Below are positions 28,629-49,229 of a DNA stretch of 50,495 nucleotides, in pieces. The notes beneath the pieces were generated by a model. The model searched no databases, was not told the DNA's origin, and saw nothing but the letters and a program-made list of their open reading frames with translations. The stretch spans positions 1 to 50,495 of IMG/VR virus record IMGVR_UViG_3300021061_000023; one strand, given 5' to 3'. Position 1 is the first letter of the stretch. Every line of letters begins with the position of its first letter. This DNA is from a virus. The translations under genes and the position numbers were made by a program.

Positions 28629-29385
28629 TCTCCGCGAGCAGAGCAGTTCCCTCGGGTCCGGGGTGGACGCCCTGCTCGTAGTATTCCGCCGACCAGGGAA
28701 CTTCGATCACCTCCGGCGCCATGTTCCTAATCCAGCGGAGCGGGTCGGTGCGCTGGTTCATATCGTCGGGGATGGGGTAGCCGACCACCACCACGCGGCC
28801 CTTGTAGCGGCGTAGAAACGCCTCCCACTCGGGCTTCCAGGGCGGCAGTTCACGGTAAACGATGGCCTTCTTCTTGGCGATCCATCGGTCATAGGCGAAC
28901 GCCATGGCCAGGATCGGCCGCTTCGTCGGCATCTGCACCTCGCCCAGCCATTCGCCCTGCCGGCTGTCCGTGGCGTTCAGAACGAAGACGATGGTGTCGA
29001 GCTGCAGCACTTCGGGGCGGGCCTTGATGTAGGCCAGCTGGTTCGCCAAGCCCCAGCCGCCAGCCGACACCGGCCACACGTCGCGGCCGATGCGTTCCTC
29101 CAGCTGCGGGCCAAGACGCTCGGGCTGATCGTGAAGGGTGCCGCCGTTGACGATGCTGTCGCCGAGCAAGAGGACGCCTTCGGGAACGAACGGCTGTTCC
29201 ACCCCCATTGATAGCTCGTTGTAGGCGTAGCGACGAAGGAACACCGACCCGCGCTGATTGGGAGCGTGGATGTAGCCCTCAGGCCCCAAGTGATGCAGGG
29301 GAACGGCGGTCACGAACCGAACCATCAGTTCGACGCACAACAACGCGATGACGGCGACCATCGCCGCCCAACCGATACGCCCCAT
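28582..29385 (-). CDS. SGNH/GDSL-type hydrolase, membrane-anchored
   Basis: A 267-aa protein with an N-terminal membrane helix (GWAAMVAVIALLCVELMVRF), which should place the enzyme in the periplasm. SGNH blocks are visible: GDSI (LLLGDSIVNGG, about 72-82), the glycine block SAGGWG (about 106-111), an Asn in FVLNATDSR (about 135) and the Asp/His-end GVHPGPEGTALLAE (about 244-257). The family includes O-acetyl esterases acting on glycans. It is on the minus strand within the late region and looks like a separately expressed cargo gene. The substrate is inferred only as an O-acylated surface glycan. Confidence 0.8.
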   Translation of the reverse strand: MGRIGWAAMVAVIALLCVELMVRFVTAVPLHHLGPEGYIHAPNQRGSVFLRRYAYNELSMGVEQPFVPEGVLLLGDSIVNGGTLHDQPERLGPQLEERIGRDVWPVSAGGWGLANQLAYIKARPEVLQLDTIVFVLNATDSRQGEWLGEVQMPTKRPILAMAFAYDRWIAKKKAIVYRELPPWKPEWEAFLRRYKGRVVVVGYPIPDDMNQRTDPLRWIRNMAPEVIEVPWSAEYYEQGVHPGPEGTALLAEIIAGGLARPSQVARR

Positions 29386-29429
29386 TCAGCGAGTATGTCG
29401 GCGCCCCGACCGTCTTGCAACTCCAGCAT

Positions 29430-29594
29430 TCACCATTCGCGCAGGTTGCACGGCTCGCAGTATCCGAACTGATCGATATCGCGCCTCACCCGCCGGCAGG
29501 TGCGGCACCTGAGCAGGGGCCCGGTTCCGTGGTCGGCCTCGGGATCGGTTACCTCTACGAGCCAGCGCCAGAAGCGGGCCAGGATCGTCCTCAT
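29430..29594 (-). CDS. Zinc-ribbon-like small protein
   Basis: A 54-aa protein starting MRTILARFWRWLVEV, with two CxxC pairs (CRTC and CEPC, about 33-49) expected to bind one zinc ion. It precedes the SGNH hydrolase by 44 nt on the same strand, so the two are likely co-transcribed. I see no known family. An upstream in-frame extension to 29714 lacks coding character and crosses a hairpin. Confidence 0.55.
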   Translation of the reverse strand: MRTILARFWRWLVEVTDPEADHGTGPLLRCRTCRRVRRDIDQFGYCEPCNLREW

Positions 29595-29642
29595 ACATCC
29601 AGTGAAGGGCCGCCGCCTATCGGCGTCAATACGCAGATCGCA

Positions 29643-29672
29643 GCCGTGGGGATGCAGCAACATCCCCACGGC
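29643..29672. promoter_or_regulatory. 12-bp perfect hairpin between divergent genes
   Basis: Arms gccgtggggatg (29643-29654) and catccccacggc (29661-29672) are perfectly complementary around cagcaa. It lies in the 186-bp gap between the leftward zinc-ribbon gene (start 29594) and the rightward lysis-region gene (start 29781). No T-run follows on either strand. It may be an operator or a transcript-end structure. Confidence 0.5.
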
Positions 29673-29780
29673 CCCGACCCCGGACATGGAGCAAGCCCAC
29701 GCCCGAAGCCGCACCGCGCGGCAGGGAGAGGGAGCGCACCGTCTGGTTAACTAACGGTGAGCAAGCCGCCGGAGAACCGA

Positions 29781-30065
29781 ATGACATTGCCCTCTTGGAT
29801 CGCTTTGGCGTCGCTGTTTGTCCTGATCAGCCTCCAGGGGCTCGCCTTCGCATTTTGGGCCGGCCGGCTGTCTCAACGGGTGACTGGGCTCGAAAAGCAG
29901 GGGGACGGCGATGCCACCCTCGCCGAGAAGGTCATCCGCCTCACGGTCGAGATGGAGCACGCCAACGCGAGCCTGTTGAAGATGGGAAATCAGCTTGAGG
30001 GCGTGAACCGCCAACTCGGGAACATCGCCATGGGTCGAATGGGGCAGTCGGGAGAAATGGTGTGA
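29781..30065 (+). CDS. Membrane-anchored coiled-coil protein
   Basis: A 94-aa protein; ATG 29781 is preferred over GTG 29757 because ggagaa lies four bases upstream. One membrane helix (about 6-26, IALASLFVLISLQGLAFAFW) is followed by a helical coiled-coil tail (LAEKVIRLTVEMEHANASLL). Similar anchored coiled coils occur around phage lysis genes as holin partners or inhibitors. The function is not established. Confidence 0.6.
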   Translation: MTLPSWIALASLFVLISLQGLAFAFWAGRLSQRVTGLEKQGDGDATLAEKVIRLTVEMEHANASLLKMGNQLEGVNRQLGNIAMGRMGQSGEMV

Positions 30066-30074
30066 GTGCAATCA

Positions 30075-30317
30075 ATGAATGAACGCAAGATCAACTTCGA
30101 CCTCAGCTTCAATATCCCCATCCTGATGAGCATCGTTGGAGCGGTCGCCGCCGGCTCGATGTGGGTGGCCACGGTGAACAACAAGCTCGACACCCTGGCT
30201 GTTGTGGTGGCTGACCAGGCTGCGACCAGGGTGCAGATCGAAGACCTCCGAAATCAAGTCCTCAAGAACCGGGAAGAGACCCTCGAAAACCGCCGAGTAA
30301 TTACGGAGGGAGAATGA
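30075..30317 (+). CDS. Second membrane-anchored coiled-coil protein
   Basis: An 80-aa protein (MNERKINFDLSFNIPILMSI) with a membrane helix at about 15-35 and a coiled-coil tail (VQIEDLRNQVLKNREETLEN). It has the same topology as its upstream neighbour, from which it is separated by 9 nt, so the two may form a membrane complex. The resemblance to XhlA-like holin-associated proteins is only in layout. Confidence 0.6.
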   Translation: MNERKINFDLSFNIPILMSIVGAVAAGSMWVATVNNKLDTLAVVVADQAATRVQIEDLRNQVLKNREETLENRRVITEGE

Positions 30318-30339
30318 CGGCGACTGAGCACGCTGCCCG

Positions 30340-30453
30340 ATGTGGGATTATTTCGCCATCGTCGGCATTCTCGCGCATGTCTTGGTCGCGGCCGGAGTTG
30401 GGCTCTACTTCGTCGGCGTGGCCATCGTGAAGTCCATGATCGGGGTCCGGTAG
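30340..30453 (+). CDS. 37-aa membrane peptide
   Basis: A short frame (MWDYFAIVGILAHVLVAAGV start) that is essentially one membrane helix with a short basic end. It begins 22 nt after the previous stop; the strong ggaggg lies 30 nt upstream, beside a competing out-of-frame ATG at 30314. Codon third positions are G+C-rich as in neighbouring genes. It could be a small holin component. Confidence 0.45.
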   Translation: MWDYFAIVGILAHVLVAAGVGLYFVGVAIVKSMIGVR

Positions 30454-30489
30454 CTCGCCGGCCTTGTAGCGGATAAGCTGAAGTAGGGG

Positions 30490-30729
30490 TTAGAGCGCCG
30501 GAACCATCCAAGTGGCGGCGACCCCAAGCCGGGCCATTTCTTCCCTGATCTTCGCCCCTTTGAGCCTCGACTCCTCGGTGTTCCACGCCTTCAGTTCGGC
30601 GAGCTGTTTCGGCGTTACGAACATACCGTCGCCGACTTTGACAAGCTCTCCGGCGGCAACCTTGGCGTTGAGGTCGGCGAGCATTGCTTCGAAGCGCCCG
30701 TCGTCCTCGGTGATGATCTCGGTGGTCAC
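30490..30729 (-). CDS. Hypothetical protein
   Basis: A 79-aa acidic helical protein with GTG start (VTTEIITEDDGRFEAMLADL), followed by GDGMFVTPKQLAELKAWN. It is separated by one base from the exported protein gene upstream and should share its leaderless transcript. No family recognised. It might be a cytoplasmic partner of the exported protein. Confidence 0.68.
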   Translation of the reverse strand: MTTEIITEDDGRFEAMLADLNAKVAAGELVKVGDGMFVTPKQLAELKAWNTEESRLKGAKIREEMARLGVAATWMVPAL

Positions 30730-30730
30730 G

Positions 30731-31132
30731 CTAGGCCGCCTGTCTCACCGGCACGTGCTTGTACATCCATCCACCCGGCGGATCGGGTTCGATGAACTCA
30801 ATCTTGTCGGTGGGTCTCTTGGACGTGTCGTCGGTGAAGACGCACGACTCAAACACGCCGGCAGGCTTGCCCTCAAAGGTGGCCAGCGCGCACCCGGCAG
30901 GCCTCACCCATACGCGGGGGTTGGTATCGACACGGGCGAGGATGTTGGCCTTCTCCGGCGCGCTGCGGACGACGCGCCATTCGGCCGGGGTAAGGCGGAT
31001 GCGCTTCTGACGCGCCCATAGCTCGATGGCTTTGGCTCTCCAGTCGCCGACCGGCTGCGCGGCAGCGGCGGTGACAGCGACGGCCGATCCGGCGACGCCA
31101 GCGAGAACGGCTCTACGGGCGATCATTTCCAT
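30731..31132 (-). CDS. Exported protein with twin-arginine-like signal
   Basis: A 133-aa protein starting at ATG 31132 (MEMIARRAVLAGVAGSAVAV). The RR pair plus an alanine-rich hydrophobic stretch ending TAAAA suggests a Tat- or Sec-type signal peptide cut near residue 26. The mature part has two cysteines (PAGCALA, FESCVF), consistent with a periplasmic disulphide, and a GGWMYKHVPV end. The start codon is 5 nt from a -10-like element in a promoter duplicated at 35.5 kb. It is probably a lysogenically expressed cargo gene; function unknown. Confidence 0.66.
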   Translation of the reverse strand: MEMIARRAVLAGVAGSAVAVTAAAAQPVGDWRAKAIELWARQKRIRLTPAEWRVVRSAPEKANILARVDTNPRVWVRPAGCALATFEGKPAGVFESCVFTDDTSKRPTDKIEFIEPDPPGGWMYKHVPVRQAA

Positions 31133-31137
31133 GCCTG

Positions 31138-31166
31138 AGAGTCCCACGAAAGCGGCGGCTTTTCAA
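31138..31166 (-). promoter_or_regulatory. Likely leaderless promoter, copy 1
   Basis: On the minus strand: -35 TTGAAA (31166-31161), 17-bp spacer, -10-like GACTCT (31143-31138), then CAGGC and ATG. Transcription would begin at or next to the start codon. The element is matched in sequence and spacing by the one at 35488-35516. Confidence 0.55.
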
Positions 31167-31210
31167 CTCTCTCGCCGCACCCCAACCCACCCCCACCGCA
31201 AGAGGTATCT

Positions 31211-31489
31211 ATGACGCTCCCCAAGATCGTCACCGACCTGTTTACCGGCCCTGACGGCCACACCTGGCACATGGGCCGGTTCGGCGCGGCCATGACGGTG
31301 ATCAGCGGTCTTCCCCTGCCTTGGGTGCAGCTCTGGCGCACAGGTGTCCTGGACCTTGCGGCGACGGGCGTCTTCTACAGCGGTGTCGCGGCTGGGGCCT
31401 GGGCGATGGCCCAGGGCGCCAAGAACATGGACCTGATGCCTGAGGGGTCCGCCACCACAACCACCACCACGACAACGGAGACCCTGTAA
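31211..31489 (+). CDS. Holin-like membrane protein
   Basis: A 92-aa protein with two hydrophobic segments (about 25-42 and 47-66) and a short soluble end with eight consecutive threonines encoded by an ACN run. It lies directly before the DUF2778 gene (1-bp overlap) in the lysis module, so a holin role is reasonable. Ribosome site agagg precedes ATG 31211. No family is certain. Confidence 0.62.
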   Translation: MTLPKIVTDLFTGPDGHTWHMGRFGAAMTVISGLPLPWVQLWRTGVLDLAATGVFYSGVAAGAWAMAQGAKNMDLMPEGSATTTTTTTTETL

Positions 31490-31866
31490 TGTGGACCTGG
31501 GATCAATCCGCCGGAAAACTCTACCACAACGGCCAGCTCGTCTCGACCGGCTACAGCGGCAAGGCGCGCGGGAAGAACAACCCGGCCATGCAAGGCGAGC
31601 GAGGCTTCGGTCCGATCCCGCGCGGCAAGTGGAAGATCGTCAGCCGCTATGACAGCAAGAACGTCGGCCCCTACGCCCTGACCCTTCACGCTGTCGATGG
31701 CAAGTTGGACGACACGCACGCCCCAACGGGGAGGGGAGCGTTCCGCATCCACGGGGACAGCGCGCGGGCTCCCGGCACGGCGAGCCAAGGCTGCATCATC
31801 CTTCCCCGGGCCATTCGCGAGAAGATCTGGACGAGCGGGGATCGTGACCTGGAGGTGGTGGAGTGA
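31489..31866 (+). CDS. DUF2778 (Tlde1-like L,D-transpeptidase fold), candidate endolysin
   Basis: A 125-aa protein beginning MWTWDQSAGKLYHNGQLVST. The active-site pattern is RIHGDSARAPGTASQGCIILP (about 84-104, given here in full only to the Cys): a His followed after ~14 residues by S-x-G-C, as in YkuD/DUF2778 L,D-transpeptidase folds, with Cys as nucleophile. Tlde1 proteins of this fold attack peptidoglycan peptides. Sitting between holin-like and spanin genes with no lysozyme or amidase nearby, it is the best endolysin candidate. It has no signal peptide, so a holin would be needed. Confidence 0.8.
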   Translation: MWTWDQSAGKLYHNGQLVSTGYSGKARGKNNPAMQGERGFGPIPRGKWKIVSRYDSKNVGPYALTLHAVDGKLDDTHAPTGRGAFRIHGDSARAPGTASQGCIILPRAIREKIWTSGDRDLEVVE

Positions 31867-32267
31867 TCCCCCGCTGGCTCATCGGAGCGGGCGTCGCCCT
31901 CTTCCTCATGCTCCTGGGCGCCTTCGTGTTCGGAGGCCCCATCGTCTCGTTCTGGAAAGCCCAGACCCACAAGTGGCAGGCCAAGGAAGAGACGGCGCAG
32001 GACAACGCCGCCGCGCGAGGCCTTGAAGCCGGGGCTGGCCAGGCCCTCGCCACCGAACAAGCCGCCATCACCGAGCGCATCATCGAGCGCAACAACGAAA
32101 GCATCCGCTATGTGGAGAAGGCCAATGCAGCCCCGGACGCGCAAACTCCTCTCGGCTCTGATCGTCAGCAGCGTATGCGTGACCACTATGTCAGCCTGTG
32201 CAAACAGCGGCCGGCAGTCTGCGCCAGTGGCGAAAGCCCCAAGGGTGACGACCCCGCTTTACGCTAA
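31863..32267 (+). CDS. Inner-membrane spanin (Rz-like)
   Basis: A 134-aa protein with an N-terminal membrane anchor (IPRWLIGAGVALFLMLLGAF) and a long periplasmic helical part (LATEQAAITERIIERNNESI) containing two cysteines near the C-terminus. This is the i-spanin topology. It overlaps the endolysin candidate by 4 nt and contains the start of an o-spanin in another frame. It would fuse the inner and outer membranes at lysis with its partner. Confidence 0.75.
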   Translation: MIPRWLIGAGVALFLMLLGAFVFGGPIVSFWKAQTHKWQAKEETAQDNAAARGLEAGAGQALATEQAAITERIIERNNESIRYVEKANAAPDAQTPLGSDRQQRMRDHYVSLCKQRPAVCASGESPKGDDPALR

Positions 32268-32502
32268 GGCCCCCTGCAAGCTCTACGGGCCTCCGGAGGG
32301 GCGGGAGCTGACCCTGCAAGACCTGGAGATCACGGCGGCCATCCGAGGGGTGGAGATCGTCACCTGTGACGAGAAGCGGGTACTGGCGGACAAGGCCAAC
32401 ATCGAGCAGCAAAAGGCCCTGGACGCCTGGGAAGCTGAGCGCGCCAAGCGGCGGTGCGAGTGGTGGCGGTTCGGGACATGCAAGCCACCTGACCCCGGCT
32501 AG
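32125..32502 (+). CDS. Outer-membrane spanin-like lipoprotein (Rz1-like), overlapping Rz
   Basis: A 125-aa protein starting inside the i-spanin gene in a different frame (MQPRTRKLLSALIVSSVCVT). A lipoprotein signal with lipobox-like MSAC (Cys about 25) is followed by a proline-containing segment. The overlapping Rz/Rz1 arrangement is classical. Unusually, it extends 78 codons beyond the i-spanin stop with a charged C-terminal part (ELTLQDLEITAAIRGVEIVT and a Cys-rich end), longer than typical Rz1. Confidence 0.66.
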   Translation: MQPRTRKLLSALIVSSVCVTTMSACANSGRQSAPVAKAPRVTTPLYAKAPCKLYGPPEGRELTLQDLEITAAIRGVEIVTCDEKRVLADKANIEQQKALDAWEAERAKRRCEWWRFGTCKPPDPG

Positions 32503-32580
32503 TGACCTCACTTAGGGCCTTACTGAGGACAGTAGCCCCCTGACTGATAGCCCTTGAGACTTAGGTCTCGGGCCAACAGA

Positions 32581-32614
32581 AAGGCCCCGCTGGCGATTGC
32601 TGGCGGGGCCTTTT
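32581..32614 (+). terminator. Intrinsic terminator after the lysis genes
   Basis: A 10-bp stem aaggccccgc / gcggggcctt (32581-32590 and 32603-32612) with a 12-base loop is followed by TT, giving a TTTT run. It ends the rightward late operon. A mirrored TT-rich flank (ctttct on the minus strand) may also stop the leftward SPFH operon, which ends at 32633. Confidence 0.8.
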
Positions 32615-32632
32615 GCCGTTCGGAGGGCTGGC

Positions 32633-33460
32633 TTAGCGGATGTTGACGAACGGGGTTGCGCCGGGGCCGACGACCTGCGGCATCTGGCCATTCCACTTGG
32701 CGATGGCCTGCTGTTCCAGAACCTGCGGATTGGCGCGGAGGGCCTCGCCACGGAGGCGGTATGCTTCGGCGTCACCCTTGGCGATGGCGATCTTCTCCAG
32801 GGCTTGCGCCTCCGCCACTTTCACCTTGGCGGTGGCCGCGAGAACGTTCTGGTCGGCTTGGGTGCGCGACTTGATGCTTTCGAGGATCAGGTCGGGGAAG
32901 CGGATCGAGCCGATCCATTCCAGTTGGGAGATTGTCACCCCCTCCTTCGACCATTTGGTCTGGACGGTCTTGAGGGCGCGCTGGATCACCTGCTGACGCC
33001 CGCCAGCCAAAAGGTCATCGACGCCGACCTTCTCCGTTTCGGCGGCGATGGCGGCCCGCACGTCGTTGCGGATGGGTCCGTCGAGCAGTTGGGGAAAGCT
33101 GAGCCGGTACTTGGCGTACAGGGCTGGCGCGGCTCTCGGCTCGACCTTCAGGGTGGCGGCCACGTCGGCGGTCATGGGCAGGCCGGTGCGGTCGGTGAAG
33201 ACGATCTCTTCGTTTTCGTCGCCGTCGTCGGTCTTCTCGCGGGTGTAGGGGTAGGTCTTCTGGATCGTCGGATAGACCTCGATACGCTCCCCGATGCCGG
33301 TGGCGTGCCACCCGTTCGGCAAGGCTTCCTGCTGGACACCGGCGCCAGAGCCGAGGGTCTTCACCTTCACGCCGGCGTTGCCCGGCTCAACGGTCTTGCC
33401 GCAAGCGGCGGTGGAAAGCGCGGCGACACAGACGGCCGCCAGGATGATGGCTCGCTTCAT
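32633..33460 (-). CDS. SPFH/Band 7 lipoprotein
   Basis: A 275-aa protein from ATG 33460 with ribosome site aggaa. A lipoprotein signal peptide ends in STAAC (Cys about 20). The body is a Band 7/prohibitin-like domain (GNAGVKVKTLGSGAGV, TDRTGLPMTADVAATLKVEP) followed by the family's helical AKVKVAEAQALEKIAIAKGD (about 221-240), ending near the C-terminus in VVGPGATPFVNI. SPFH proteins form oligomeric membrane cages. Its operon partner is a two-helix membrane protein overlapping by 4 nt. Phage copies may protect or remodel the host envelope; that role is inferred. Confidence 0.84.
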   Translation of the reverse strand: MKRAIILAAVCVAALSTAACGKTVEPGNAGVKVKTLGSGAGVQQEALPNGWHATGIGERIEVYPTIQKTYPYTREKTDDGDENEEIVFTDRTGLPMTADVAATLKVEPRAAPALYAKYRLSFPQLLDGPIRNDVRAAIAAETEKVGVDDLLAGGRQQVIQRALKTVQTKWSKEGVTISQLEWIGSIRFPDLILESIKSRTQADQNVLAATAKVKVAEAQALEKIAIAKGDAEAYRLRGEALRANPQVLEQQAIAKWNGQMPQVVGPGATPFVNIR

Positions 33461-33693
33461 TGGTTCCTCGTAGGTTGGAAGTGCTTGGCGACGTCGCGGA
33501 ACATGACCAGGGCGACCCAGGCCAGACCGAGAACGCCGAACGCGGCGGCGGCAACAGCGCCGAACAGGCCGTAGTCGCTCGCCGAGCCCCAGAGGGGGCC
33601 AACGACGCCACGGAACAGGGTCATTGCGGCGGCGATCCAGAGGAGGGCGTAGGCCGCCCCCTTCGCCGCGCCGATGAACTGGCTTTCGTACAC
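33457..33693 (-). CDS. Two-helix membrane protein, partner of the SPFH gene
   Basis: A 78-aa protein starting with GTG 33693 after an aggaga ribosome site. It has two membrane helices (about 9-28 and 43-64) and a basic C-terminal tail (FRDVAKHFQPTRNQ). Its stop overlaps the SPFH start (ATGA), so expression is coupled. No family recognised. It could anchor or regulate the SPFH oligomer. Confidence 0.68.
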   Translation of the reverse strand: MYESQFIGAAKGAAYALLWIAAAMTLFRGVVGPLWGSASDYGLFGAVAAAAFGVLGLAWVALVMFRDVAKHFQPTRNQ

Positions 33694-33723
33694 GGGTGAT
33701 CTCCTGCGGCGACGGGGCGGGGG

Positions 33724-33773
33724 TTGCAAAATCGCCGTGACGTAGATATAAACGCGACGTTGATTTTGAGCAA
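33724..33773. promoter_or_regulatory. Face-to-face overlapping promoters with repeats
   Basis: Rightward: TTGCAA (33724-33729), 17 bp, TATAAA (33747-33752). Leftward: TTGCTC (33773-33768), 17 bp, TATATC (33750-33745). The two -10 boxes overlap, so only one direction can fire at a time. The 8-mer ACGTAGAT occurs at 33740-33747 and again at 33800-33807 over the regulator start codon, a possible operator pair. Confidence 0.6.
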
Positions 33774-33805
33774 TACATGCCGGAAGAAAAAACGACGCCA
33801 CGTAG

Positions 33806-34060
33806 ATGAGTTGTGCGACTCCCCCCGACGCGCTATCCGCTGCCCTGGTGAAGAACACGCCCTGGCAAGCGCGGCTGAAGGCTGCCGGCCTGACGCAGAA
33901 GCGTCTCGCCGCGCTGCTGGGCGTGGCTGAGAACACGATCTCCCGCCAGATGAAGGGGGATTGGGACGTGCCAGGCTATGTGGAGGCGTTCGTGGTCGCT
34001 TGGGAGGAAAGCCCCCCGGACGTCAGGGAGCGGGTCGCCAAGCGGCTGGGCAAGCCCTAG
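33806..34060 (+). CDS. Small HTH regulator
   Basis: An 84-aa protein with a Cro/C1-like helix-turn-helix (LKAAGLTQKRLAALLGVAEN then TISRQMKGDW, about 24-53). ATG 33806 is used; GTG 33848 just before the HTH is possible and would still give a complete fold. It is transcribed from the TATAAA promoter and faces the leftward SPFH operon. It could repress that operon and itself. It lacks any oligomerisation domain of a CI-type repressor. Confidence 0.7.
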   Translation: MSCATPPDALSAALVKNTPWQARLKAAGLTQKRLAALLGVAENTISRQMKGDWDVPGYVEAFVVAWEESPPDVRERVAKRLGKP

Positions 34061-34115
34061 ACCCGGGCAGAGCCTTCGAGGGCGTCGTGTCTTAGGTACC
34101 GGGCCACACGGCTGA

Positions 34116-34149
34116 GGTAAACTCGGTCAAAATCGGTAAACTCGATCAA
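34116..34149. repeat. Two 15-bp direct repeats
   Basis: ggtaaactcggtcaa (34116-34130) and ggtaaactcgatcaa (34135-34149) differ by one base and are 19 bp apart, immediately before a terminator. Possible protein-binding sites or a recombination remnant. Confidence 0.5.
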
Positions 34150-34177
34150 GCCCCTCGGTTCAGACCGGGGGGCTTTT
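34148..34177 (+). terminator. Intrinsic terminator
   Basis: A 12-bp stem with one G-T pair (34148-34159 and 34164-34175), loop TCAG, followed by TT to give a TTTT run. It ends transcription of the small HTH regulator and separates it from the leftward early genes. Confidence 0.75.
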
Positions 34178-34187
34178 CGCGTTTGGG

Positions 34188-34466
34188 CTAGGCGGTCTGC
34201 GCGTTCGGAGCGTCGTCATCCTCGTACAGGCGCTTGCCGGTCTCGTCTTCGATCCAGACCGTATAGCGCTCGTCGCCGCATTCGGACTCATGGTCATCGT
34301 CGCCGGCTGCTTGCGCGAAGAACAGGCCTCGGTTGCAGTCACAAGACCAGTTGCCCATGTCCCAAATGAACTCGGCAGCCTCTAGGTCTTCCGCAAACCA
34401 AAGGTCGCGGTCAGTCAGGGAGCGAACCTCGGCCGTCGTGTTGTCGCGGATGAAGACCGTGGTCAT
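34188..34466 (-). CDS. Hypothetical acidic protein
   Basis: A 92-aa acidic protein (TTVFIRDNTTAEVRSLTDRD, then WSCDCNRGLFFAQ and ERYTVWIEDETGKRLYED). Conserved-looking Cys and aromatic residues suggest a small beta domain. ATG 34466 overlaps the stop of the HD-domain gene (ATGA). It is the last gene of the leftward early operon. No family known to me. Confidence 0.7.
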   Translation of the reverse strand: MTTVFIRDNTTAEVRSLTDRDLWFAEDLEAAEFIWDMGNWSCDCNRGLFFAQAAGDDDHESECGDERYTVWIEDETGKRLYEDDDAPNAQTA

Positions 34467-34906
34467 GCTGCGGCTTTTGTCAGGCCAGCAAGGACGGCGA
34501 TGTTCCGCTGATATTTCCAGAACCGCTTGTGGTCCTTCTGGGTCGGGTTGGGAATGCGGGACAGGTCGGCGTTGTCCTGCAGGTCCGCCATCTTCACGAT
34601 GCGGGCGATGGGGTTGCGGGACACGCGCTTGATGAAGGCGCCATAGGCCTCGCCATCGCGGCGGGTCAGGGCCTCGACGGCTTCGATCACTGGCGCGGAG
34701 AAGCCTTCGCGTGCGAGGTCGGCAGCGGTTACGTCGGTGTCCTCCAAGACGTCGTGCAGGACCGCCGCGATGCGCGCCTCGTCCCCGTCAACGTCGATGG
34801 CAAACATGACGCGGAGCGGATGGAGGATGTACGGCGCACCGCCATTGTCCACTTGGCCAGCGTGGGCGGTGACCGCAATCTGAATGGCGCGCTCCAGGCT
34901 GCTCAT
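34463..34906 (-). CDS. HD-domain (p)ppGpp hydrolase-like protein (RSH/MESH1-type)
   Basis: A 147-aa protein starting MSSLERAIQIAVTAHAGQVD. The RSH hydrolase motifs are visible: H in TAHAGQ and GGAPYILHPLRVMF (about 14-37), the HD pair in AAVLHDVLEDTDVT (about 50-63) and the distal D in IVKMADLQDNADL (about 109-121). No synthetase or TGS domain, so it is a stand-alone hydrolase of the small alarmone hydrolase kind. It could lower host (p)ppGpp during infection (inference). It overlaps both neighbours by 4 nt. Confidence 0.82.
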   Translation of the reverse strand: MSSLERAIQIAVTAHAGQVDNGGAPYILHPLRVMFAIDVDGDEARIAAVLHDVLEDTDVTAADLAREGFSAPVIEAVEALTRRDGEAYGAFIKRVSRNPIARIVKMADLQDNADLSRIPNPTQKDHKRFWKYQRNIAVLAGLTKAAA

Positions 34907-35199
34907 GCTGCGGCTTCTGTCTTGCTGGGGTGGGATAGGATGTGGTCGATGACCCTGACGAAAGCCTCCGCTACAATTCCCTCGCTGATGAAGAAATCGG
35001 GGTTGCTGTCGGCGGCAGCGGCCACAGCCTCCGCCCCCGGCTCCCGTAGAGCGGTGAGGATGGGCGCGATCATGTGTCGATAGGCCGGCCATGCGCCGTT
35101 GACGTACTTCTGCACGACAGGCTGTTCGGCCTTGCCGTGTTTGAGGCAGTCGGCCAGACAGGCCGCCCGCGCCAGCCGTTCGATCACCGGGTTTTCCAT
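34903..35199 (-). CDS. Hypothetical helical protein
   Basis: A 98-aa alpha-helical protein (ENPVIERLARAACLADCLKH, then DFFISEGIVAEAFVRVIDHI). ATG 35199 has caggag 10 bases upstream. It is coupled to the alarmone hydrolase-like gene by a 4-nt overlap. No motif recognised. Confidence 0.68.
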   Translation of the reverse strand: MENPVIERLARAACLADCLKHGKAEQPVVQKYVNGAWPAYRHMIAPILTALREPGAEAVAAAADSNPDFFISEGIVAEAFVRVIDHILSHPSKTEAAA

Positions 35200-35200
35200 G

Positions 35201-35482
35201 TTAGGCCAACTCCTGGATAGCGACGGCCCTGGCGGCGAGACCTTGACGCAATACGTCGCGGAGTGCGTCGCCTAGGCTCGATGGGTGGCCGATATCGGCA
35301 TGGAAGCCGTCGTCGAACCCCTCGATCGCGAGGAGCGGTCGATCGTCCCACTGGAAGTCTGGTCCTGCGCTAGCGTGACAAGAGACGGAGCATTTGCCCA
35401 ACGAGAACCACCAGCCCGGAAGGGCGGCCTGGAACTCGTCGATGGCGGCTCGGAGGTCGTCGGTTTCGCCGGGCGTTTCCAT
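35201..35482 (-). CDS. Hypothetical protein, first gene of a leaderless operon
   Basis: A 93-aa acidic protein (METPGETDDLRAAIDEFQAA start, then GWWFSLGKCSVSCHASAGPD). ATG 35482 is chosen because a promoter element conserved with 31.1 kb ends five bases before it. A GTG at 35497 is in frame but lies within that element. It is followed closely by the helical protein and alarmone hydrolase-like genes, which share the transcript. Confidence 0.68.
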   Translation of the reverse strand: METPGETDDLRAAIDEFQAALPGWWFSLGKCSVSCHASAGPDFQWDDRPLLAIEGFDDGFHADIGHPSSLGDALRDVLRQGLAARAVAIQELA

Positions 35483-35487
35483 ACCCA

Positions 35488-35516
35488 AGAATCCCACGAA
35501 AACCCTTGAGATTCAA
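35488..35516 (-). promoter_or_regulatory. Likely leaderless promoter, copy 2
   Basis: On the minus strand: -35 TTGAAT (35516-35511), 17-bp spacer, -10-like GATTCT (35493-35488), TGGGT, ATG. The stretch TTTCGTGGGA inside the spacer and the start ATGGAAA are the same as in the copy at 31138-31166. Confidence 0.55.
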
Positions 35517-35757
35517 GCAAAAGCGGGCGATATTAGCCGGGCTGCGGCGGCGGGGAAGGACCCGCTACCGGATGGCTCAGACCCGAGCCGGCTGCCCGCA
35601 CCAGGCATATCGAAAGATGTGCGACGGCGCGACCCGAAAGGGAGGGGGCAGACGGTAGCCATGGCGCGCGCGCCGCCTACACGTCGGGAGCCGGTATCAA
35701 GCCCGGCCCGCAGCATCTTCCCTCGCCAAGCCCTACGCGACCAACTACCGTCCCAAC
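35517..35757. other. Divergent intergenic region with possible RNA structure
   Basis: No gene seen in this 241-bp gap. It contains gcgggcg (35523-35529) paired with tgcccgc followed by accagg, inner stems gcggg/cccgc and ggctc/gagcc, and a GGCGCGCGCGCC palindrome (35663-35674). A promoter for the rightward gene at 35758 should be here but is not evident. Confidence 0.35.
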
Positions 35758-35991
35758 ATGGATGAATTAGAGCGCAGACTGGCCGCCCTGGAACTCTGGG
35801 CCATCGAGGTCGGCAGCTTCATAGAGCCCCAGCACCTTGCCGACGCGGCCCGTTCAATCCGCTCCTGCATTGACACCGTAGACCCCGAAGAGCGGGATAT
35901 CCGCATGGGAGCGTTAGGGCTTATCGAGGACGCTCAACGCCGCTGGGCGCCGCCTGCCGAGGGGCTGTGTGTTCCTGGGGAAGACCCGTAG
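35758..35991 (+). CDS. Hypothetical small helical protein
   Basis: A 77-aa protein (MDELERRLAALELWAIEVGS, then PQHLADAARSIRSCIDTVDP) with a leucine-rich N-terminal helix able to form a coiled coil. It is transcribed opposite to its neighbours and stops 8 bp from the convergent gene at 36000. Low similarity to anything I know; coding potential looks real. Confidence 0.55.
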   Translation: MDELERRLAALELWAIEVGSFIEPQHLADAARSIRSCIDTVDPEERDIRMGALGLIEDAQRRWAPPAEGLCVPGEDP

Positions 35992-35999
35992 ACTGGCGG

Positions 36000-36583
36000 T
36001 CATCTGCCGATGTCCGTGAGGTAGTCGATTGCCGCTTCGTGGCGGGCTTTGATGTCAGCCTTCTCGAAGGGATCTAGGCGGAAGCCTTCAGGGGCGTCGC
36101 ACTCGTTCAGCAGGTAGGTGACGGCGCGGGTGAGGCCCTCAAGGTGATCCGCACCCCCTGCCGCATTGGATGCTCGGAACCCCGCCTCAAAGGCTGCCCA
36201 CAGCGCGCGTCTGGAGTGGCCGGGATAGCTCGCCTGACGACAGGCGTTCTCAAAGTCGTCTGTCGCTGCGTAGGCGCACCATGCAAGCTTCACGGGCTCG
36301 TCCGGACGATGGCCGTTGCCCGCCCCGTCACTTCCCGTCTGCGTGTTCGCAGGCTCAGGGCGTCGTTCGCCATGGCTGTTCATGCCGCACTCAGGGCAGT
36401 GCTGGCCGGGGACGACCTGCGTGCAGAAGTAGTTGTCGGCGTATCCGTCTCCGCGCCGGTACTTGTGACCGCAATGCTCGCAGCCGCAGATGAAGGAGAA
36501 GTCGTTCCGATATTGATCCCACTCCTGGTCAGTGGGATCGGTCGCGGCGGGACTGAGGCTGGCGGGAGTTGGAGCGCGCTCAT
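36000..36583 (-). pseudogene. Zinc-ribbon protein with an apparent 1-nt frameshift near its start
   Basis: The frame ending at 36000 is open to about 36630 but has no start codon before ATG 36383. That upstream part encodes EWDQYRNDFSFICGCEHCGH, then YFCTQVVPGQHCPECG, a convincing four-to-six-Cys zinc ribbon. ATG 36583, overlapping the previous stop, begins in the adjacent frame (MSALQL). Adding one C to the ctcccg run at about 36563-36568 would give a single natural protein MSALQLPASLSPAATDPTDQ onwards of about 194 aa. It may be a sequencing error, a real mutation or programmed shifting. The intact part from 36383 is 127 aa. Confidence 0.6.
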
Positions 36584-36610
36584 GCTTTACCCGTGGCGCG
36601 GGAGATGGCG
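36565..36610. repeat. 46-bp gene-end repeat, copy 1
   Basis: Matches 49031-49076 with a single base difference. It encodes the AISRATGKA end of one gene and the M(S/N)ALQL start of the next. Confidence 0.85.
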
Positions 36611-36771
36611 ACTTCGGCTTTGCGAATGAACGTCATGCCCTCGCGGGCGATTGCGGGGGTGGTGCTCAGCAGGGCGAAGCGGAACAGTTCCTTGACCTCG
36701 CGAAGGCTCTCCACCAGATCGGCGATCAGCTCGTCCTTCTCCCCTTGCGAGCGCTCTTTGGGCGTAGTCAT
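36580..36771 (-). CDS. Small protein sharing both ends with the 49.05-kb gene
   Basis: A 63-aa protein (MTTPKERSQGEKDELIADLV, then a helix and AISRATGKA at the end). Its ERSQGEK start and AISRATGKA end are identical to those of the protein at 49046-49228, while the middle is unrelated. It overlaps both neighbours by 4 nt. No functional motif recognised. Confidence 0.7.
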   Translation of the reverse strand: MTTPKERSQGEKDELIADLVESLREVKELFRFALLSTTPAIAREGMTFIRKAEVAISRATGKA

Positions 36772-36989
36772 GGGGCGGTCTTCTTGACGGCAGCGGCGAC
36801 CGCATCCCGATCCAGCCACAGCACCAAGCCGAGCATCTTCGTCCCCTTGAGGTCGATGGGCTGCCCCGTCCCAAAGGTGATCTTCGTGCCCTTCTTCTCG
36901 CTGTAATTCAGGTCGATGGCGCACTGGTCGAGGTTCTGAAACTGGACGTTGTCATCGCCGACGGCGAGAATGAGTTCGGACATTTTCAT
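36768..36989 (-). CDS. Hypothetical small protein
   Basis: A 73-aa protein (MKMSELILAVGDDNVQFQNL, then KKGTKITFGTGQPIDL). Strong ribosome site gggaggaa precedes ATG 36989 and lies within a 30-bp block repeated at 49.24 kb. A second ATG at 36983 is in frame. Probably a small beta protein. It overlaps both neighbours by 4 nt. Confidence 0.72.
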   Translation of the reverse strand: MKMSELILAVGDDNVQFQNLDQCAIDLNYSEKKGTKITFGTGQPIDLKGTKMLGLVLWLDRDAVAAAVKKTAP

Positions 36990-37225
36990 TGGGGGTTCCT
37001 CCCGGGACTGAGGCTGGCGTCTGCGCGGCGCTCCTCTTGGTCGCTGCCACTTGGCTTCGGCGTGTTTGTAGGGGCGCACCAAGGGCACGGTTCGGTGCGC
37101 CAAGCGGCCTCGGCATGGTCGAACCATCCGATCTCACCCCGACCATTGCAGGCCTCGCACACCCGCTTCTTCCGCCGGGGCTTCGGCCTGATACCCATCG
37201 CGGGTTTCCACAGATGATTGCTCAC
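36986..37225 (-). CDS. Zinc-finger microprotein, DnaJ-like CxxCxGxG
   Basis: A 79-aa protein with CEACNGRGEIGW and EPCPWC (about 23-50), the paired CxxC arrangement of DnaJ-type or other zinc ribbons. The C-terminal 25 residues are basic, proline-containing and encoded by DNA that is repeated elsewhere in the early region. It starts MSNHLWKPAM and overlaps the XRE gene's stop by 4 nt. It could bind nucleic acid or a host protein. Confidence 0.7.
   Translation of the reverse strand: MSNHLWKPAMGIRPKPRRKKRVCEACNGRGEIGWFDHAEAAWRTEPCPWCAPTNTPKPSGSDQEERRADASLSPGRNPQ
36994..37023. repeat. 30-bp start-region repeat, copy 1
   Basis: Identical to 49230-49259. On the minus strand it ends gggaggaacc and supplies the ribosome site for the gene starting at 36989. 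Confidence 0.85.
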
Positions 37226-37461
37226 GGCACCAGCTCCCTCATTGGGACCTCAAGAAAGTCGGCGATCTTGCGGAGCCGGGAGACGGGCAGATCGGAGCGC
37301 CCGCACTCGATGTTGGCGACCTGTGCCCGCGACAAACCGGCAGCGCTCGCCACTTCGTCCTGCGTTTTTCGCTTGGCCTTGCGGGCCGCCTGGATAAACA
37401 GGCCGACGTGAGCCTTCTCGATGGGCAGATCACCCGTGCCGTCGCAGTAGGGGCACTTCAT
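37222..37461 (-). CDS. XRE-family regulator with N-terminal zinc knuckle
   Basis: A 79-aa protein. CPYCDGTG (about 3-10) is followed by a Cro/C1-type HTH (FIQAARKAKRKTQDEVASAA, then GLSRAQVANIECGRSDLPVS, about 22-61). ATG 37461 overlaps the previous stop (ATGA). The CxxCxGxG half-site plus HTH is an uncommon combination. As part of the early operon it may be a Cro-like or middle-gene regulator; its operator is not identified. Confidence 0.78.
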   Translation of the reverse strand: MKCPYCDGTGDLPIEKAHVGLFIQAARKAKRKTQDEVASAAGLSRAQVANIECGRSDLPVSRLRKIADFLEVPMRELVP

Positions 37462-37718
37462 GGCCGCTCACCGACGCGAAGGTGAACCTCGTCGCGGACG
37501 TTTCTCCCGCATACCAGACACCCATGCTCATCGCCGGGGTCGACAACATGGATGTGCCGCTTGACCCGCAGGGCTTCCTCTATTGCCGCCACGACAGCAT
37601 CCGCCTCACTGGCGGCGAGGACGTGGTCAAACGCGACGGCAATGGTGTGGGTGTCGCGCCGATAGCAAGTGAAGGCTTCCGGATTATAGGCCGACGCCGG
37701 TGCGAGGCTCACAGCCAC
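37458..37718 (-). CDS. Hypothetical protein with CxxC motif
   Basis: An 86-aa protein with GTG start (VAVSLAPASAYNPEAFTCYR), a helix (ASEADAVVAAIEEALRVKRH) and CLVCGRNVRDEVHLRVG at the end. It overlaps the neighbouring membrane protein gene by 10 nt and the XRE gene by 4 nt. The single CxxC may pair with another protein's cysteines. No family known. Confidence 0.66.
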   Translation of the reverse strand: MAVSLAPASAYNPEAFTCYRRDTHTIAVAFDHVLAASEADAVVAAIEEALRVKRHIHVVDPGDEHGCLVCGRNVRDEVHLRVGERP

Positions 37719-37906
37719 ACCATCACGATCACGCCAAGCGCCGCAATGAGTTCACCGCCAGCGCGGGCCATAGAGCGCCAGTGGTCGCCGACGGAACCGT
37801 ACTGTACCTCGGTCGCTAGCAGGCTGTGGGTTCGCTGTGCCCCGTAGATCACGAAGGCGCTGGCGGCGATCTTGGCGATGATGAGAAGCCAATTGATGGC
37901 GGTCAT
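37709..37906 (-). CDS. Small two-helix membrane protein
   Basis: A 65-aa protein (MTAINWLLIIAKIAASAFVI start) with membrane helices at about 4-22 and 48-64 and a soluble loop. ATG 37906 has tggag upstream and overlaps the previous stop by 4 nt. As an early-expressed membrane protein it could be involved in superinfection exclusion; this is a guess from topology. Confidence 0.62.
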   Translation of the reverse strand: MTAINWLLIIAKIAASAFVIYGAQRTHSLLATEVQYGSVGDHWRSMARAGGELIAALGVIVMVWL

Positions 37907-38172
37907 TTCGGCTGCTCCAGCAGGTCTCGCGCCAGCCGCGCTTGAAGGTCCACCACGCCGCCAAGAGCCGTGTGGCGATGCTCTGTCATGCCTCGCCCGG
38001 CGTACCCGCTGCCGACCGCCGTTACCCGCTCACCATCGAGTTGAACAGTGGTGACCGCTATGCCGTGGAAGTCGCCGTCGCGAGCCGATTGGAGCATCCG
38101 CTGGCAGAAGCGCACGACCTCTTCGTCGGCTGTGGCTACTGGCTCATTCTCTACCAAGTGCACGGTGTTCAT
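37903..38172 (-). CDS. Hypothetical protein, first gene of a leftward operon
   Basis: An 89-aa protein (MNTVHLVENEPVATADEEVV, then GIAVTTVQLDGERVTAVGSG). The central part looks like a short beta domain followed by a helix (VDLQARLARDLLEQ). Its ribosome site ggag lies inside operator arm 1 at 38.18 kb, so repressor binding would block both transcription and the first gene's initiation region. It starts the operon running to about 36.0 kb. Confidence 0.68.
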   Translation of the reverse strand: MNTVHLVENEPVATADEEVVRFCQRMLQSARDGDFHGIAVTTVQLDGERVTAVGSGYAGRGMTEHRHTALGGVVDLQARLARDLLEQPK

Positions 38173-38175
38173 TGG

Positions 38176-38272
38176 CTATCTCCGATATCGTAGTTGAACT
38201 CTACACCCATCCCTGTTAGGGTCAACCACGATATCGGAGATAGAGATATTTTGACCGCAACCGCGATATCGC
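38176..38272. promoter_or_regulatory. Divergent promoter with three CGATATCG operators
   Basis: A 22-bp inverted repeat with one mismatch (38176-38197 and 38222-38243) brackets two overlapping promoters: rightward TTGAAC (38194-38199), 17 bp, TAGGGT (38217-38222); leftward TTGACC (38225-38220), 16 bp, TAGAGT (38203-38198). CGATATCG occurs at 38183-38190, 38229-38236 and 38264-38271, the last as the 10-bp palindrome GCGATATCGC inside the rightward gene. This is a typical early-gene switch. Confidence 0.78.
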
Positions 38273-38499
38273 TCACAACGCTCCCGATGCCGGGGCCAAA
38301 GCCGCAAGACCTAGAAGACATCCTCGGGCGGTATCCGCGCGGGACAAAGGAGCGAATTGCCCGGCTGCTCGGCGAGGGGGCGCCCAAGGGCGCGCAGGCC
38401 GAATTGCTACGCGAGGCCCTGGAGAGGGAGCTAAGGCGGAGGGAGCGGCACGCGAAGCTCAAAGCCCTCGCCAAGCCTAGAACCCATCCCGCAGGTTGA
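38251..38499 (+). CDS. Small basic regulator at the operator region
   Basis: An 82-aa protein from TTG 38251, which has ggag upstream; ATG 38287 (MPGPKPQDLEDILGRYPRGT) is the alternative. It is basic and helical (RIARLLGEGAPKGAQAELLR, then REALERELRRRERHAKLKAL). The arrangement of a short strand followed by helices is compatible with a ribbon-helix-helix DNA-binding protein, but not diagnostic. Its position next to three palindromes makes it the likely protein acting there. Confidence 0.62.
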   Translation: MTATAISLTTLPMPGPKPQDLEDILGRYPRGTKERIARLLGEGAPKGAQAELLREALERELRRRERHAKLKALAKPRTHPAG

Positions 38500-38749
38500 T
38501 GAGCGGCGTTCCTGGCGCGGCGTTGGCGGAGAAGAACACCCGCCCGGGGCAGTCACCCTTGCACCTGGGCCGCCTGTTCCACAGCGAGTAGTTCTCGCCC
38601 TTCTCGGCAATGATCGCATCAAGATCGACAGGCCAGACCGTCTTGCACCGTGAGCAGTAGGCGGTGACCGTGCACCCGCGCTCAACGCCCTCTTTCAGGA
38701 GGCCTACGGTAGAGGACCACAGGGGGATGGTGGCGGAGGGGGTTCGCAT
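38477..38749 (-). CDS. Zinc-ribbon protein
   Basis: A 90-aa protein with CTVTAYCSRC (about 26-35), WPVDLDAIIAEKGENYSLW and RCKGDCPGRVFF (about 62-73): CxxC plus CxxxC, a probable zinc ribbon of the kind common in phage early regions. ATG 38749 is used. It is convergent with the regulator at 38251, overlapping by 23 bp. Confidence 0.72.
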   Translation of the reverse strand: MRTPSATIPLWSSTVGLLKEGVERGCTVTAYCSRCKTVWPVDLDAIIAEKGENYSLWNRRPRCKGDCPGRVFFSANAAPGTPLINLRDGF

Positions 38750-38790
38750 CCCCCGGCTTATGCCTTGGAGAACGGGAGGGGAACAAGGGG

Positions 38791-38991
38791 CTAGGCGGGG
38801 CTCGCGGGCTTCGTCCCCAGCTTCACCTCTCCACCTTCCCCAACAGTCCCAACCGCTACAGGGCGAAGGGCAAACTCTCGGAGGATGGCGTCGGCGGCGT
38901 GAACTGAGCGGTTGTCGCCTTGCCCTGCGTACATCTCGATGATGGCGACCAGCCTCTCCCTAACCCGCTCTCTCAGTACGTCACTGCTCAT
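38791..38991 (-). CDS. Hypothetical helical protein
   Basis: A 66-aa protein (MSSDVLRERVRERLVAIIEM, then NRSVHAADAILREFALRPVA). ATG 38991 overlaps the upstream gene by 11 nt. The helix-hinge-helix pattern is short; no family assigned. A 41-bp gap separates it from the zinc-ribbon gene. Confidence 0.62.
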   Translation of the reverse strand: MSSDVLRERVRERLVAIIEMYAGQGDNRSVHAADAILREFALRPVAVGTVGEGGEVKLGTKPASPA

Positions 38992-39376
38992 AGACGTTAA
39001 TCCCGAACAAGGTGCGCCACTTTTCCTCATCGACCGCCTTCAACTCCTGAACGGTGCGGTTCACCCGCGCCTCATAGTCCGGCGGCTGCGGCCAGACATC
39101 TAGGCTTTCGCCAGGTGGCCCGATTAGCTCGCAGGTCTTTATGTCGCCGTCATACAGCGTGCGGAACCCGCCACTGCACGACATCCCGGCCATAGGCTTG
39201 ATCTGCCGAACTGCTGCAAAGAGAATGCTGCTAGGCCAAGGGTCGTGACCGCAGAGCTGCGCAACGCGTCGCGCGACCTCTTCCGTCAGGTTCCTGTTGA
39301 CTGATACCGTGCCGCCGTGGGTGACGGTTATTACAGCCCAGCACGCTGGCGAGTCTACCGTTTCGGCGTCTTCCAT
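38981..39376 (-). CDS. Hypothetical protein
   Basis: A 131-aa protein (MEDAETVDSPACWAVITVTH, then VNRTVQELKAVDEEKWRTLF). ATG 39376 is preferred: the stretch ggaagATGGAAGAC with an aggaagga site matches the start of the next upstream gene at 39572. ATG 39400, overlapping that gene's stop, is the alternative. No domain recognised. Confidence 0.66.
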   Translation of the reverse strand: MEDAETVDSPACWAVITVTHGGTVSVNRNLTEEVARRVAQLCGHDPWPSSILFAAVRQIKPMAGMSCSGGFRTLYDGDIKTCELIGPPGESLDVWPQPPDYEARVNRTVQELKAVDEEKWRTLFGINVYEQ

Positions 39377-39392
39377 CTTCCGTCCTTCCTGT

Positions 39393-39572
39393 TCACTCAT
39401 GGGGAGGGGGAGTTTCCGCAACAGCACGCAGGTCTAGGGCGAGGGCGTCAAGCGCCTGTCGCCCCGTCATGCCCGGATAAAGCTTGTAGGCGGCGTCCAT
39501 AATACTATCGCGATGGCCTGCGGTCACGACGATCTCGGCCAGCCTTTGAAGGCGTTTGCTTCTGTCTTCCAT
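39393..39572 (-). CDS. 59-aa helical protein
   Basis: A short gene (MEDRSKRLQRLAEIVVTAGH start, then MTGRQALDALALDLRAVAET) with aaggaggggaag as ribosome site before ATG 39572. Its end overlaps an alternative start of the next gene. Helical and soluble; function unknown. It has normal codon use for the region. Confidence 0.6.
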   Translation of the reverse strand: MEDRSKRLQRLAEIVVTAGHRDSIMDAAYKLYPGMTGRQALDALALDLRAVAETPPPHE

Positions 39573-39583
39573 CTTCCCCTCCT

Positions 39584-39808
39584 TCAGGGACTAGGGGGCT
39601 CAGTCAAAGCCTGCCGAAGGTCGGCAACCTCTTCCAGCCGCCAGGCAATCTCCTCCTGCAGATCTTCCAATCGGGCGCGCATGGCGGCCTCGATAGTGGG
39701 GTACTCGCCGTTGATCCCGGCGGGGATGTCGTGGATGTAGCCCGCGTCGCTCGATATGAAGGTCGCCGGTTCATCCTCGTGGTGTTGCCAAGTCCAGGTC
39801 AGTTCCAT
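39584..39808 (-). CDS. Hypothetical protein
   Basis: A 74-aa protein from ATG 39808 with ggagggatgag upstream (MELTWTWQHHEDEPATFISS start). A tryptophan-rich beta N-terminus is followed by a long charged helix (MRARLEDLQEEIAWRLEEVA). Upstream in-frame sequence is not coding-like. Function unknown. Confidence 0.64.
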   Translation of the reverse strand: MELTWTWQHHEDEPATFISSDAGYIHDIPAGINGEYPTIEAAMRARLEDLQEEIAWRLEEVADLRQALTEPPSP

Positions 39809-39809
39809 C

Positions 39810-44464: not shown

Positions 44465-44467
44465 GGG

Positions 44468-46477: not shown

Positions 46478-46501
46478 CGACGGGGCTCCTTAGTGGAATG
46501 G

Positions 46502-46554: not shown

Positions 46555-46579
46555 CACACATTGTGCGCGGAGTGCATAC

Positions 46580-46762: not shown

Positions 46763-46781
46763 TAGATCCAACCCCCGGCCA

Positions 46782-49049: not shown

Positions 49050-49076
49050 GCTTTACCCGTGGCGCGGGAGATGGCG
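49031..49076. repeat. 46-bp gene-end repeat, copy 2
   Basis: Second copy of the block at 36565-36610, in the same relative place within a gene of different middle sequence. Confidence 0.85.
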
Positions 49077-49228: not shown

Positions 49229-49229
49229 G

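What the first reader, a model, noticed from the sequence alone, without database searches (positions are those of the whole stretch)
34463..34906. Phage stand-alone alarmone hydrolase-like HD protein
The RSH HD motifs are complete and no synthetase domain is present. Lowering (p)ppGpp could prevent a stringent response or a (p)ppGpp-triggered defence during infection. It shares a leaderless transcript with two unknown small proteins.
Basis: partly seen in the sequence, partly recalled or inferred. Interest (0 to 1): 0.6.

Follow-up and report, generated by a model that had tools for sequence, protein, structure and literature searches.

The report
Phage enzyme likely degrading (p)ppApp
A temperate phage carries a small stand-alone enzyme of the known Aph1 family, which most likely breaks down the toxic adenine alarmone (p)ppApp rather than the starvation signal (p)ppGpp; the enzyme type is already known, but here it stands without the toxin it usually protects against.

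Summary
The gene at 34463-34906 (minus strand, 147 aa) is real. The proposed substrate is probably wrong. Sequence, predicted fold, tree and pocket residues all place it with Aph1, the (p)ppApp-hydrolase family. The best solved relative is 7smg, the (p)ppApp hydrolase of Bacteroides caccae (E=7e-35; model 0.9 Å rmsd, TM 0.91-0.95). (p)ppGpp enzymes match far more weakly. The base-pocket residues that are Arg44 and Arg150 in the (p)ppGpp hydrolase RelSeq are Asp20 and Asp114 here, as in B. caccae Aph1. Its nearest relatives among annotated phages are Streptococcus Aph1 genes beside MuF-Apk2 (p)ppApp-synthetase toxins. Neither such a toxin nor any RelA/SpoT synthetase was found here or in the twin 63-kb contig, so this copy is an orphan. 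Most likely it removes 3'-pyrophosphate from adenine nucleotides, shielding the phage or lysogen from (p)ppApp-making toxins or defences; that role is inference. The 'leaderless transcript' claim is not supported: the gene is third in a tight four-gene operon whose second gene has a strong Shine-Dalgarno. New member of a known kind; the role of orphan phage Aph1s is the open question.

The parts
34463..34906 (-). Aph1-type adenosine 3'-pyrophosphohydrolase gene (147 aa, HD_4 fold, stop included)
34820..34822 (-). His29, metal ligand (RelSeq H53)
   Evidence: invariant in 31 aligned relatives; numbering from the 1vj7 alignment
34751..34756 (-). His51-Asp52, HD dyad (RelSeq H77-D78)
34739..34744 (-). 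Glu55-Asp56, catalytic ED motif (RelSeq E81-D82)
34583..34585 (-). Asp108, metal ligand (RelSeq D144)
34847..34849 (-). Asp20 at the RelSeq R44 position (base pocket): D in all known Aph1s examined, R in RelSeq, SpoT, long Rels and PaSpo SSU5
34565..34567 (-). Asp114 at the RelSeq R150 position: D in four of five Aph1 references, R or K in nearly all long Rels, R in SpoT
34903..35199 (-). 98-aa upstream gene, unknown; overlaps the HD start by 4 bp (ATGA); no relative found except in its own twin contig
34188..34466 (-). 92-aa downstream gene, unknown; overlaps the HD stop by 4 bp; relatives in other phages with no annotated hydrolase near the two examined
35201..35497 (-). 98-aa ORF, probably first gene of the four-gene operon, ends 1 nt before the next ATG
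34463..34476 (-). junction repeat AAGCCGCAGCATGA (copy 2), end of HD gene / start of 92-aa gene
34903..34916 (-). junction repeat AAGCCGCAGCATGA (copy 1), end of 98-aa gene / start of HD gene

Best explanation
The protein is an orphan member of the Aph1 family. It is a metal-dependent (probably Mn2+) HD enzyme that removes the 3'-pyrophosphate from adenine nucleotides carrying it, chiefly ppApp and pppApp, giving ADP or ATP plus pyrophosphate. It lacks the two arginines found at the base pocket of the (p)ppGpp hydrolase RelSeq. Shown here: fold, active-site residues, Aph1-type pocket residues, clade, absence of a recognisable partner synthetase, operon position, temperate carrier phage. Inferred: actual activity on (p)ppApp, and the role. 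The most likely role is to undo (p)ppApp (and perhaps other 3'-pyrophosphorylated adenosines) made by toxSAS-type toxins or defences of the host, of rival phages or of neighbouring bacteria, preserving ATP during infection or in the lysogen. I put the biochemical assignment at about 0.85 and the shielding role at about 0.5.
For: Best solved match is 7smg, (p)ppApp hydrolase, E=6.8e-35, against E about 5e-11 for the best (p)ppGpp enzyme. AlphaFold model (mean pLDDT 95.7, pTM 0.90) matches 7smg at 0.9 A, TM 0.91/0.95, E=2e-12; the next best is Mesh1 at E=4e-6. Pocket residues D20 and D114 match B. caccae Aph1 and the Streptococcus and Aggregatibacter Apk2-linked hydrolases (Mannheimia shares D20 but has C at 114); RelSeq and SpoT have R/R. 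Rows with D at position 20 form one clade (86 rows, SH-aLRT 98) holding query and known Aph1s; with the six pocket columns left out, query and Aph1s still share a group (support 95) that excludes RelSeq, SpoT, PaSpo SSU5 and long Rels. Aph1s of S. pneumoniae, M. haemolytica and P. multocida, only 43-57% identical to one another, cross-protect against each other's Apk2 toxins (PMC12226406); the query is 46% identical to 7smg. Orphan: no RelA_SpoT, MuF or Apk2 domain in window or twin contig, with an Apk2 profile that finds two Apk2-linked toxins outside its training rows (Mannheimia, Aggregatibacter).
Against: No activity was measured. The paper defining the Aph1 substrate signature (Ahmad et al. 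2023 PNAS) was not held, so the published residues could not be checked; the D20/D114 comparison is my own. Positions 114 and 115 vary within the clade. Some small hydrolases act on both ppApp and ppGpp (PMC7644958, PMC10434055). The operon neighbours give no functional clue, and no conserved neighbourhood was found in relatives.
Confidence: 0.75

Rival explanations
1. It is a (p)ppGpp hydrolase that blunts the host stringent response or a (p)ppGpp-triggered defence.
For: HD fold and all catalytic residues shared with RelA/SpoT; TIGR00691 partial match E=3e-16, far below that model's cut-off; some small hydrolases act on both nucleotides (PMC7644958, PMC10434055).
Against: Closest solved and phylogenetic relatives are (p)ppApp hydrolases; both base-pocket arginines of RelSeq are aspartates. 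[quoted passage not shown]
Confidence: 0.12
2. Its physiological substrate is the pyrophosphorylated 3'-CCA adenosine of tRNA made by translation-blocking toxSAS defences (CapRel, FaRel2 type), so it is a counter-defence enzyme that repairs tRNA.
For: The phage hydrolase PaSpo of SSU5 counteracts FaRel2 by removing its tRNA modification (PMC11559606), and CapRelSJ46, a member of the tRNA-targeting CapRel group, is an anti-phage system (PMC9712102). The tRNA lesion is a 3'-pyrophosphorylated adenosine, chemically like (p)ppApp. Only 42 phage records in the collection carry an Apk2 domain, against 538 with a hydrolase relative, so most are not immunity partners of Apk2.
Against: PaSpo SSU5 is of the R20 type, outside the query's clade; I found no report of an Aph1-clade enzyme acting on tRNA; the pocket may not accept tRNA.
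Confidence: 0.2
3. It is the immunity protein of a MuF-Apk2-type toxin carried by the same phage.
For: Its best matches among the annotated phages are Aph1 genes directly beside MuF-Apk2 toxins.
Against: The gene lies outside the head module; no MuF, RelA_SpoT or Apk2 domain in window or twin contig; no IapK-like neighbour.
Confidence: 0.05
4. It acts on another adenosine 3'/2'-phosphate (PAP, PAPS, NADPH) or has lost activity.
For: Human MESH1 has been solved with PAPS and NADPH; one relative (L016) sits beside a PAPS-reductase-like gene.
Against: All catalytic residues are conserved and the fold is nearest to a proven (p)ppApp hydrolase; Mesh1, MESH1 and SAHMex did not seem to hydrolyse NADPH in coupled assays (section heading in PMC7644958).
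Confidence: 0.06

Closest known systems
Aph1, (p)ppApp hydrolase of Bacteroides caccae (PDB 7smg)
   Same: Size, fold (0.9 A), catalytic residues, pocket Asp20/Asp114, 46% identity
   Different: Apk2/Aph1 systems pair the hydrolase with a toxin (PMC11699363, PMC12691689); the query has no toxin nearby, and its activity is not measured
Aph1 of Streptococcus pneumoniae, Mannheimia and Aggregatibacter prophages (immunity to MuF-Apk2)
   Same: Same clade, same Asp20, also phage-borne
   Different: Those sit in the head module behind a MuF-Apk2 toxin and a small IapK-like gene; the query sits outside it, between unrelated small genes
Orphan hydrolases of Vequintavirinae, e.g. Klebsiella phage KB57
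   Same: Asp20 type, same clade, no Apk2 in the genome
   Different: Large myovirus genomes, beside a gene annotated thymidylate kinase; different neighbours
PaSpo small alarmone hydrolase of Salmonella phage SSU5
   Same: Phage-borne stand-alone HD hydrolase
   Different: Arg at position 20, outside the Aph1 clade; reverses tRNA pyrophosphorylation by toxSAS (PMC11559606)
Small alarmone hydrolase of Pseudomonas phages Adele/PaGz-1
   Same: Phage-borne HD hydrolase (PMC12846349); that Adele's is of the PaGz-1 type is assumed from both being Pakpunaviruses
   Different: PaGz-1 has Tyr-Gly at the Asp20 site and lies in a separate group; the Adele authors could not predict its substrate

Membership tests
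Aph1 (p)ppApp hydrolase family | Single RSH-type HD domain of about 140-150 aa with all metal and catalytic residues | tested here: met
   147 aa; H29, H51-D52, E55-D56, D108, N112 invariant
Aph1 (p)ppApp hydrolase family | Fold and sequence closest to a proven (p)ppApp hydrolase | tested here: met
   7smg: phmmer E=6.8e-35, Foldseek E=2e-12, 0.9 A
Aph1 (p)ppApp hydrolase family | Base-pocket residues of known Aph1s (own comparison; the published signature was not readable here) | tested here: met
   D20 as in all five references; D114 as in four of five (C in Mannheimia)
Aph1 (p)ppApp hydrolase family | Groups with known Aph1s and apart from (p)ppGpp enzymes in a tree | tested here: met
   One clade of D20 rows, SH-aLRT 98; without the six pocket columns, common group support 95 with no (p)ppGpp reference inside
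Aph1 (p)ppApp hydrolase family | Hydrolyses ppApp/pppApp | not testable with these tools
   needs an enzyme assay
MuF-Apk2/IapK/Aph1 toxin-immunity module | MuF-Apk2 toxin gene adjacent | tested here: not met
   No MuF, RelA_SpoT or Apk2 domain in window or twin contig; the Apk2 profile recovers known cases
(p)ppGpp hydrolase (SpoT/Rel HD type) | Arg at RelSeq R44 and Arg-Thr at 150-151 of the base pocket | tested here: not met
   D20, D114-L115
PaSpo-type phage hydrolase (SSU5) | Groups with SSU5 PaSpo | tested here: not met
   SSU5 lies outside the query's clade

The most novel reading that the evidence does not exclude
Orphan phage Aph1 enzymes, of which this is one, are a general counter-defence class: they reverse 3'-adenosine pyrophosphorylation (of ATP/ADP or of tRNA-CCA) by toxSAS-type anti-phage systems, standing apart from any toxin partner of their own.
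Probability: 0.3. Interest if true: 0.6.

Novelty: new member of a known kind. Interest (0 to 1): 0.3.

Why it matters
It corrects a tempting (p)ppGpp annotation to a (p)ppApp one and adds a clean orphan case from a temperate phage with a probable alphaproteobacterial host. Toxin-linked Aph1s are explained as immunity proteins; orphan ones in phages are not. If they blunt toxSAS defences, they would be a product-reversing anti-defence strategy that is easy to test.

Tried and rejected
Partner toxin in the phage: RelA_SpoT (PF04607), MuF (PF04233) and an Apk2 profile all gave nothing in window and twin contig. PF04607 also misses the V22 Apk2 domain, so an own Apk2 profile was built; besides its training rows it recovers the Mannheimia and Aggregatibacter toxins. 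Neighbours as clue: the 98-aa gene has no relatives beyond the twin contig; the 92-aa gene is a stray phage protein. PADLOC: no defence-family match for the operon. Rfam: nothing. Conserved neighbourhood among relatives: none seen. Collection scan for the junction repeat: the 14-mer is too common to mean anything. The primary Aph1 paper and Jimmy et al. 2020 are not held; a search for RelSeq R44/N148 literature found nothing. Leaderless transcript: not supported by the sequence; no promoter-like site on the minus strand, but that scan covers only sigma-70-type promoters.

Full report
The observation. The ORF at 34463-34906 (minus) is a genuine 147-aa gene with strong codon-position bias (GC 0.69/0.43/0.82), phrog_990 'metal-dependent phosphohydrolase' at E=6e-53 and Pfam HD_4 above its cut-off. 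Against RelSeq, whose aligned residues are printed, the metal ligands H53, H77, D78 and D144 and the catalytic E81-D82 correspond to H29, H51, D52, D108 and E55-D56. All are invariant in 31 aligned relatives. No synthetase domain is present.

What it is. The best solved relative is the (p)ppApp hydrolase 7smg of Bacteroides caccae (E=6.8e-35), with Rel/SpoT enzymes at 5e-11 or worse. A confident AlphaFold model (pLDDT 95.7) superposes on 7smg at 0.9 Å with TM 0.91/0.95; Mesh1, P. aeruginosa SAH and Rel follow at 4e-6 or worse. RelSeq R44 and R150-T151 become D20 and D114-L115 in the query. B. caccae Aph1 (D, D, I) and the Streptococcus and Aggregatibacter Apk2-linked hydrolases (D, D, L) agree; the Mannheimia one has D, C, L; SpoT has R, R, T; PaSpo of SSU5 has R, S, S. 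That these positions contact the base is recalled knowledge of RelSeq, not tested here. In a 135-row tree the rows with Asp20 form one clade (SH-aLRT 98) holding all five Aph1 references and the query. With the six pocket columns left out, the Asp20 label needs 5 changes against 40 in shuffles, and the smallest group holding query and Aph1s has support 95 and contains none of the (p)ppGpp references, PaSpo SSU5 or PaGz-1; three non-Asp rows fall inside it and one Asp row outside. The alignment is short and many forks are open; only this separation is used.

How it probably works. By analogy with Aph1, a metal ion (probably Mn2+) bound by H29, H51, D52 and D108, with the E55-D56 pair, activates water to cut the 3'-pyrophosphate from ppApp or pppApp and return ADP or ATP. 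Aph1s of three prophages, 43-57% identical to one another, cross-protect against Apk2 toxins (PMC12226406); the query is 46% identical to 7smg, within that spread. The activity itself is inferred.

Why an orphan. In the Streptococcus, Mannheimia and Aggregatibacter phages the gene sits directly behind a MuF-Apk2 toxin and a small gene. Here it sits outside the head module among unknown small genes, and neither the window nor the 63-kb twin contig carries MuF, RelA_SpoT or Apk2 domains. In the annotated phage collection 538 records hold a hydrolase relative (all types, not only Asp20) but only 42 hold an Apk2 domain. The Klebsiella phage KB57 homologue, of the Asp20 type, also lacks Apk2. Hydrolase relatives without Apk2 are thus common in phages, and immunity to an own Apk2 cannot explain them; other, undetected synthetases are not excluded. 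Shielding against foreign (p)ppApp synthetases or tRNA-modifying toxSAS is the most economical reading: a phage SAH is known to reverse the latter (PMC11559606) and a toxSAS is a known anti-phage system (PMC9712102). This step is inference.

Operon. Four genes run leftward: 35201-35497, 34903-35199, 34463-34906, 34188-34466, with a 1-nt gap and then two ATGA overlaps. The second gene has CAGGAG upstream; the hydrolase and the last gene have weak sites and are probably translationally coupled. No minus-strand promoter-like site was found. The term 'leaderless' is not supported.

Carrier. The phage is temperate: integrase at 40575-41795, HK97-like head genes. Its twin contig begins with 517 bp that partly resemble Paracoccus, Sphingobium and Rhizobium DNA, at a point beside the integrase, as expected of an integrated copy in an alphaproteobacterium; a chimeric assembly is not excluded.

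Verdict. A real gene with a corrected substrate: an orphan Aph1-family hydrolase. New member of a known kind; interest modest, carried by the open question of what orphan phage Aph1s do.

Noticed in passing
window 40366-40575 and twin contig G001 (L002, L303, L304): Contig IMGVR_UViG_3300020202_001225 matches the window where sampled (1-3000, 28466-40365 and 40466-50495, at least 99.99%) but starts with 517 bp of alphaproteobacterium-like DNA at the point next to the integrase, and holds 12.5 kb missing from the window. The window looks like the joined (attP) form and the twin like a prophage end; the full phage is about 63 kb.
   Followed up: partly
window 34463-34476 and 34903-34916: The same 14-mer AAGCCGCAGCATGA forms both gene junctions around the hydrolase (stop of one gene, start of the next); possible cassette boundary or coincidence.
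   Followed up: partly
window 9391-10816: A glycosyltransferase-9 (heptosyltransferase-like) gene and a methyltransferase gene lie between head and tail genes.
   Followed up: no
window 6315-7655: A second ORF with strong piecewise PHROG 'portal protein' matches lies directly behind the clear portal gene at 4865-6322.
   Followed up: no
window 36565-37023 and 49031-49259: Near-identical short repeats (46 bp at 98%, 31 bp at 100%) and a similar small protein link these two regions: a partial duplication 12 kb apart.
   Followed up: no
window 8528-8607 and 39682-39769: ARAGORN calls a tRNA-Trp inside structural genes and a tRNA-Ile with its anticodon at an odd position; neither reaches Rfam's gathering score, probably spurious.
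   Followed up: partly
window 32633-33778: SPFH/Band_7 protein of phrog_200 'lipoprotein'.
   Followed up: no
L180, L051, L039, L057, L062, L065 and others: A separate group of phage HD hydrolases (including Pakpunavirus) has Tyr-Gly at the Asp20/Arg44 site: a third, uncharacterised base-pocket type.
   Followed up: no
L095, L097, L111: Aph1-type HD domains that continue in frame into longer proteins (by eye, L095 into a GNAT-like acetyltransferase), possible fusions.
   Followed up: no
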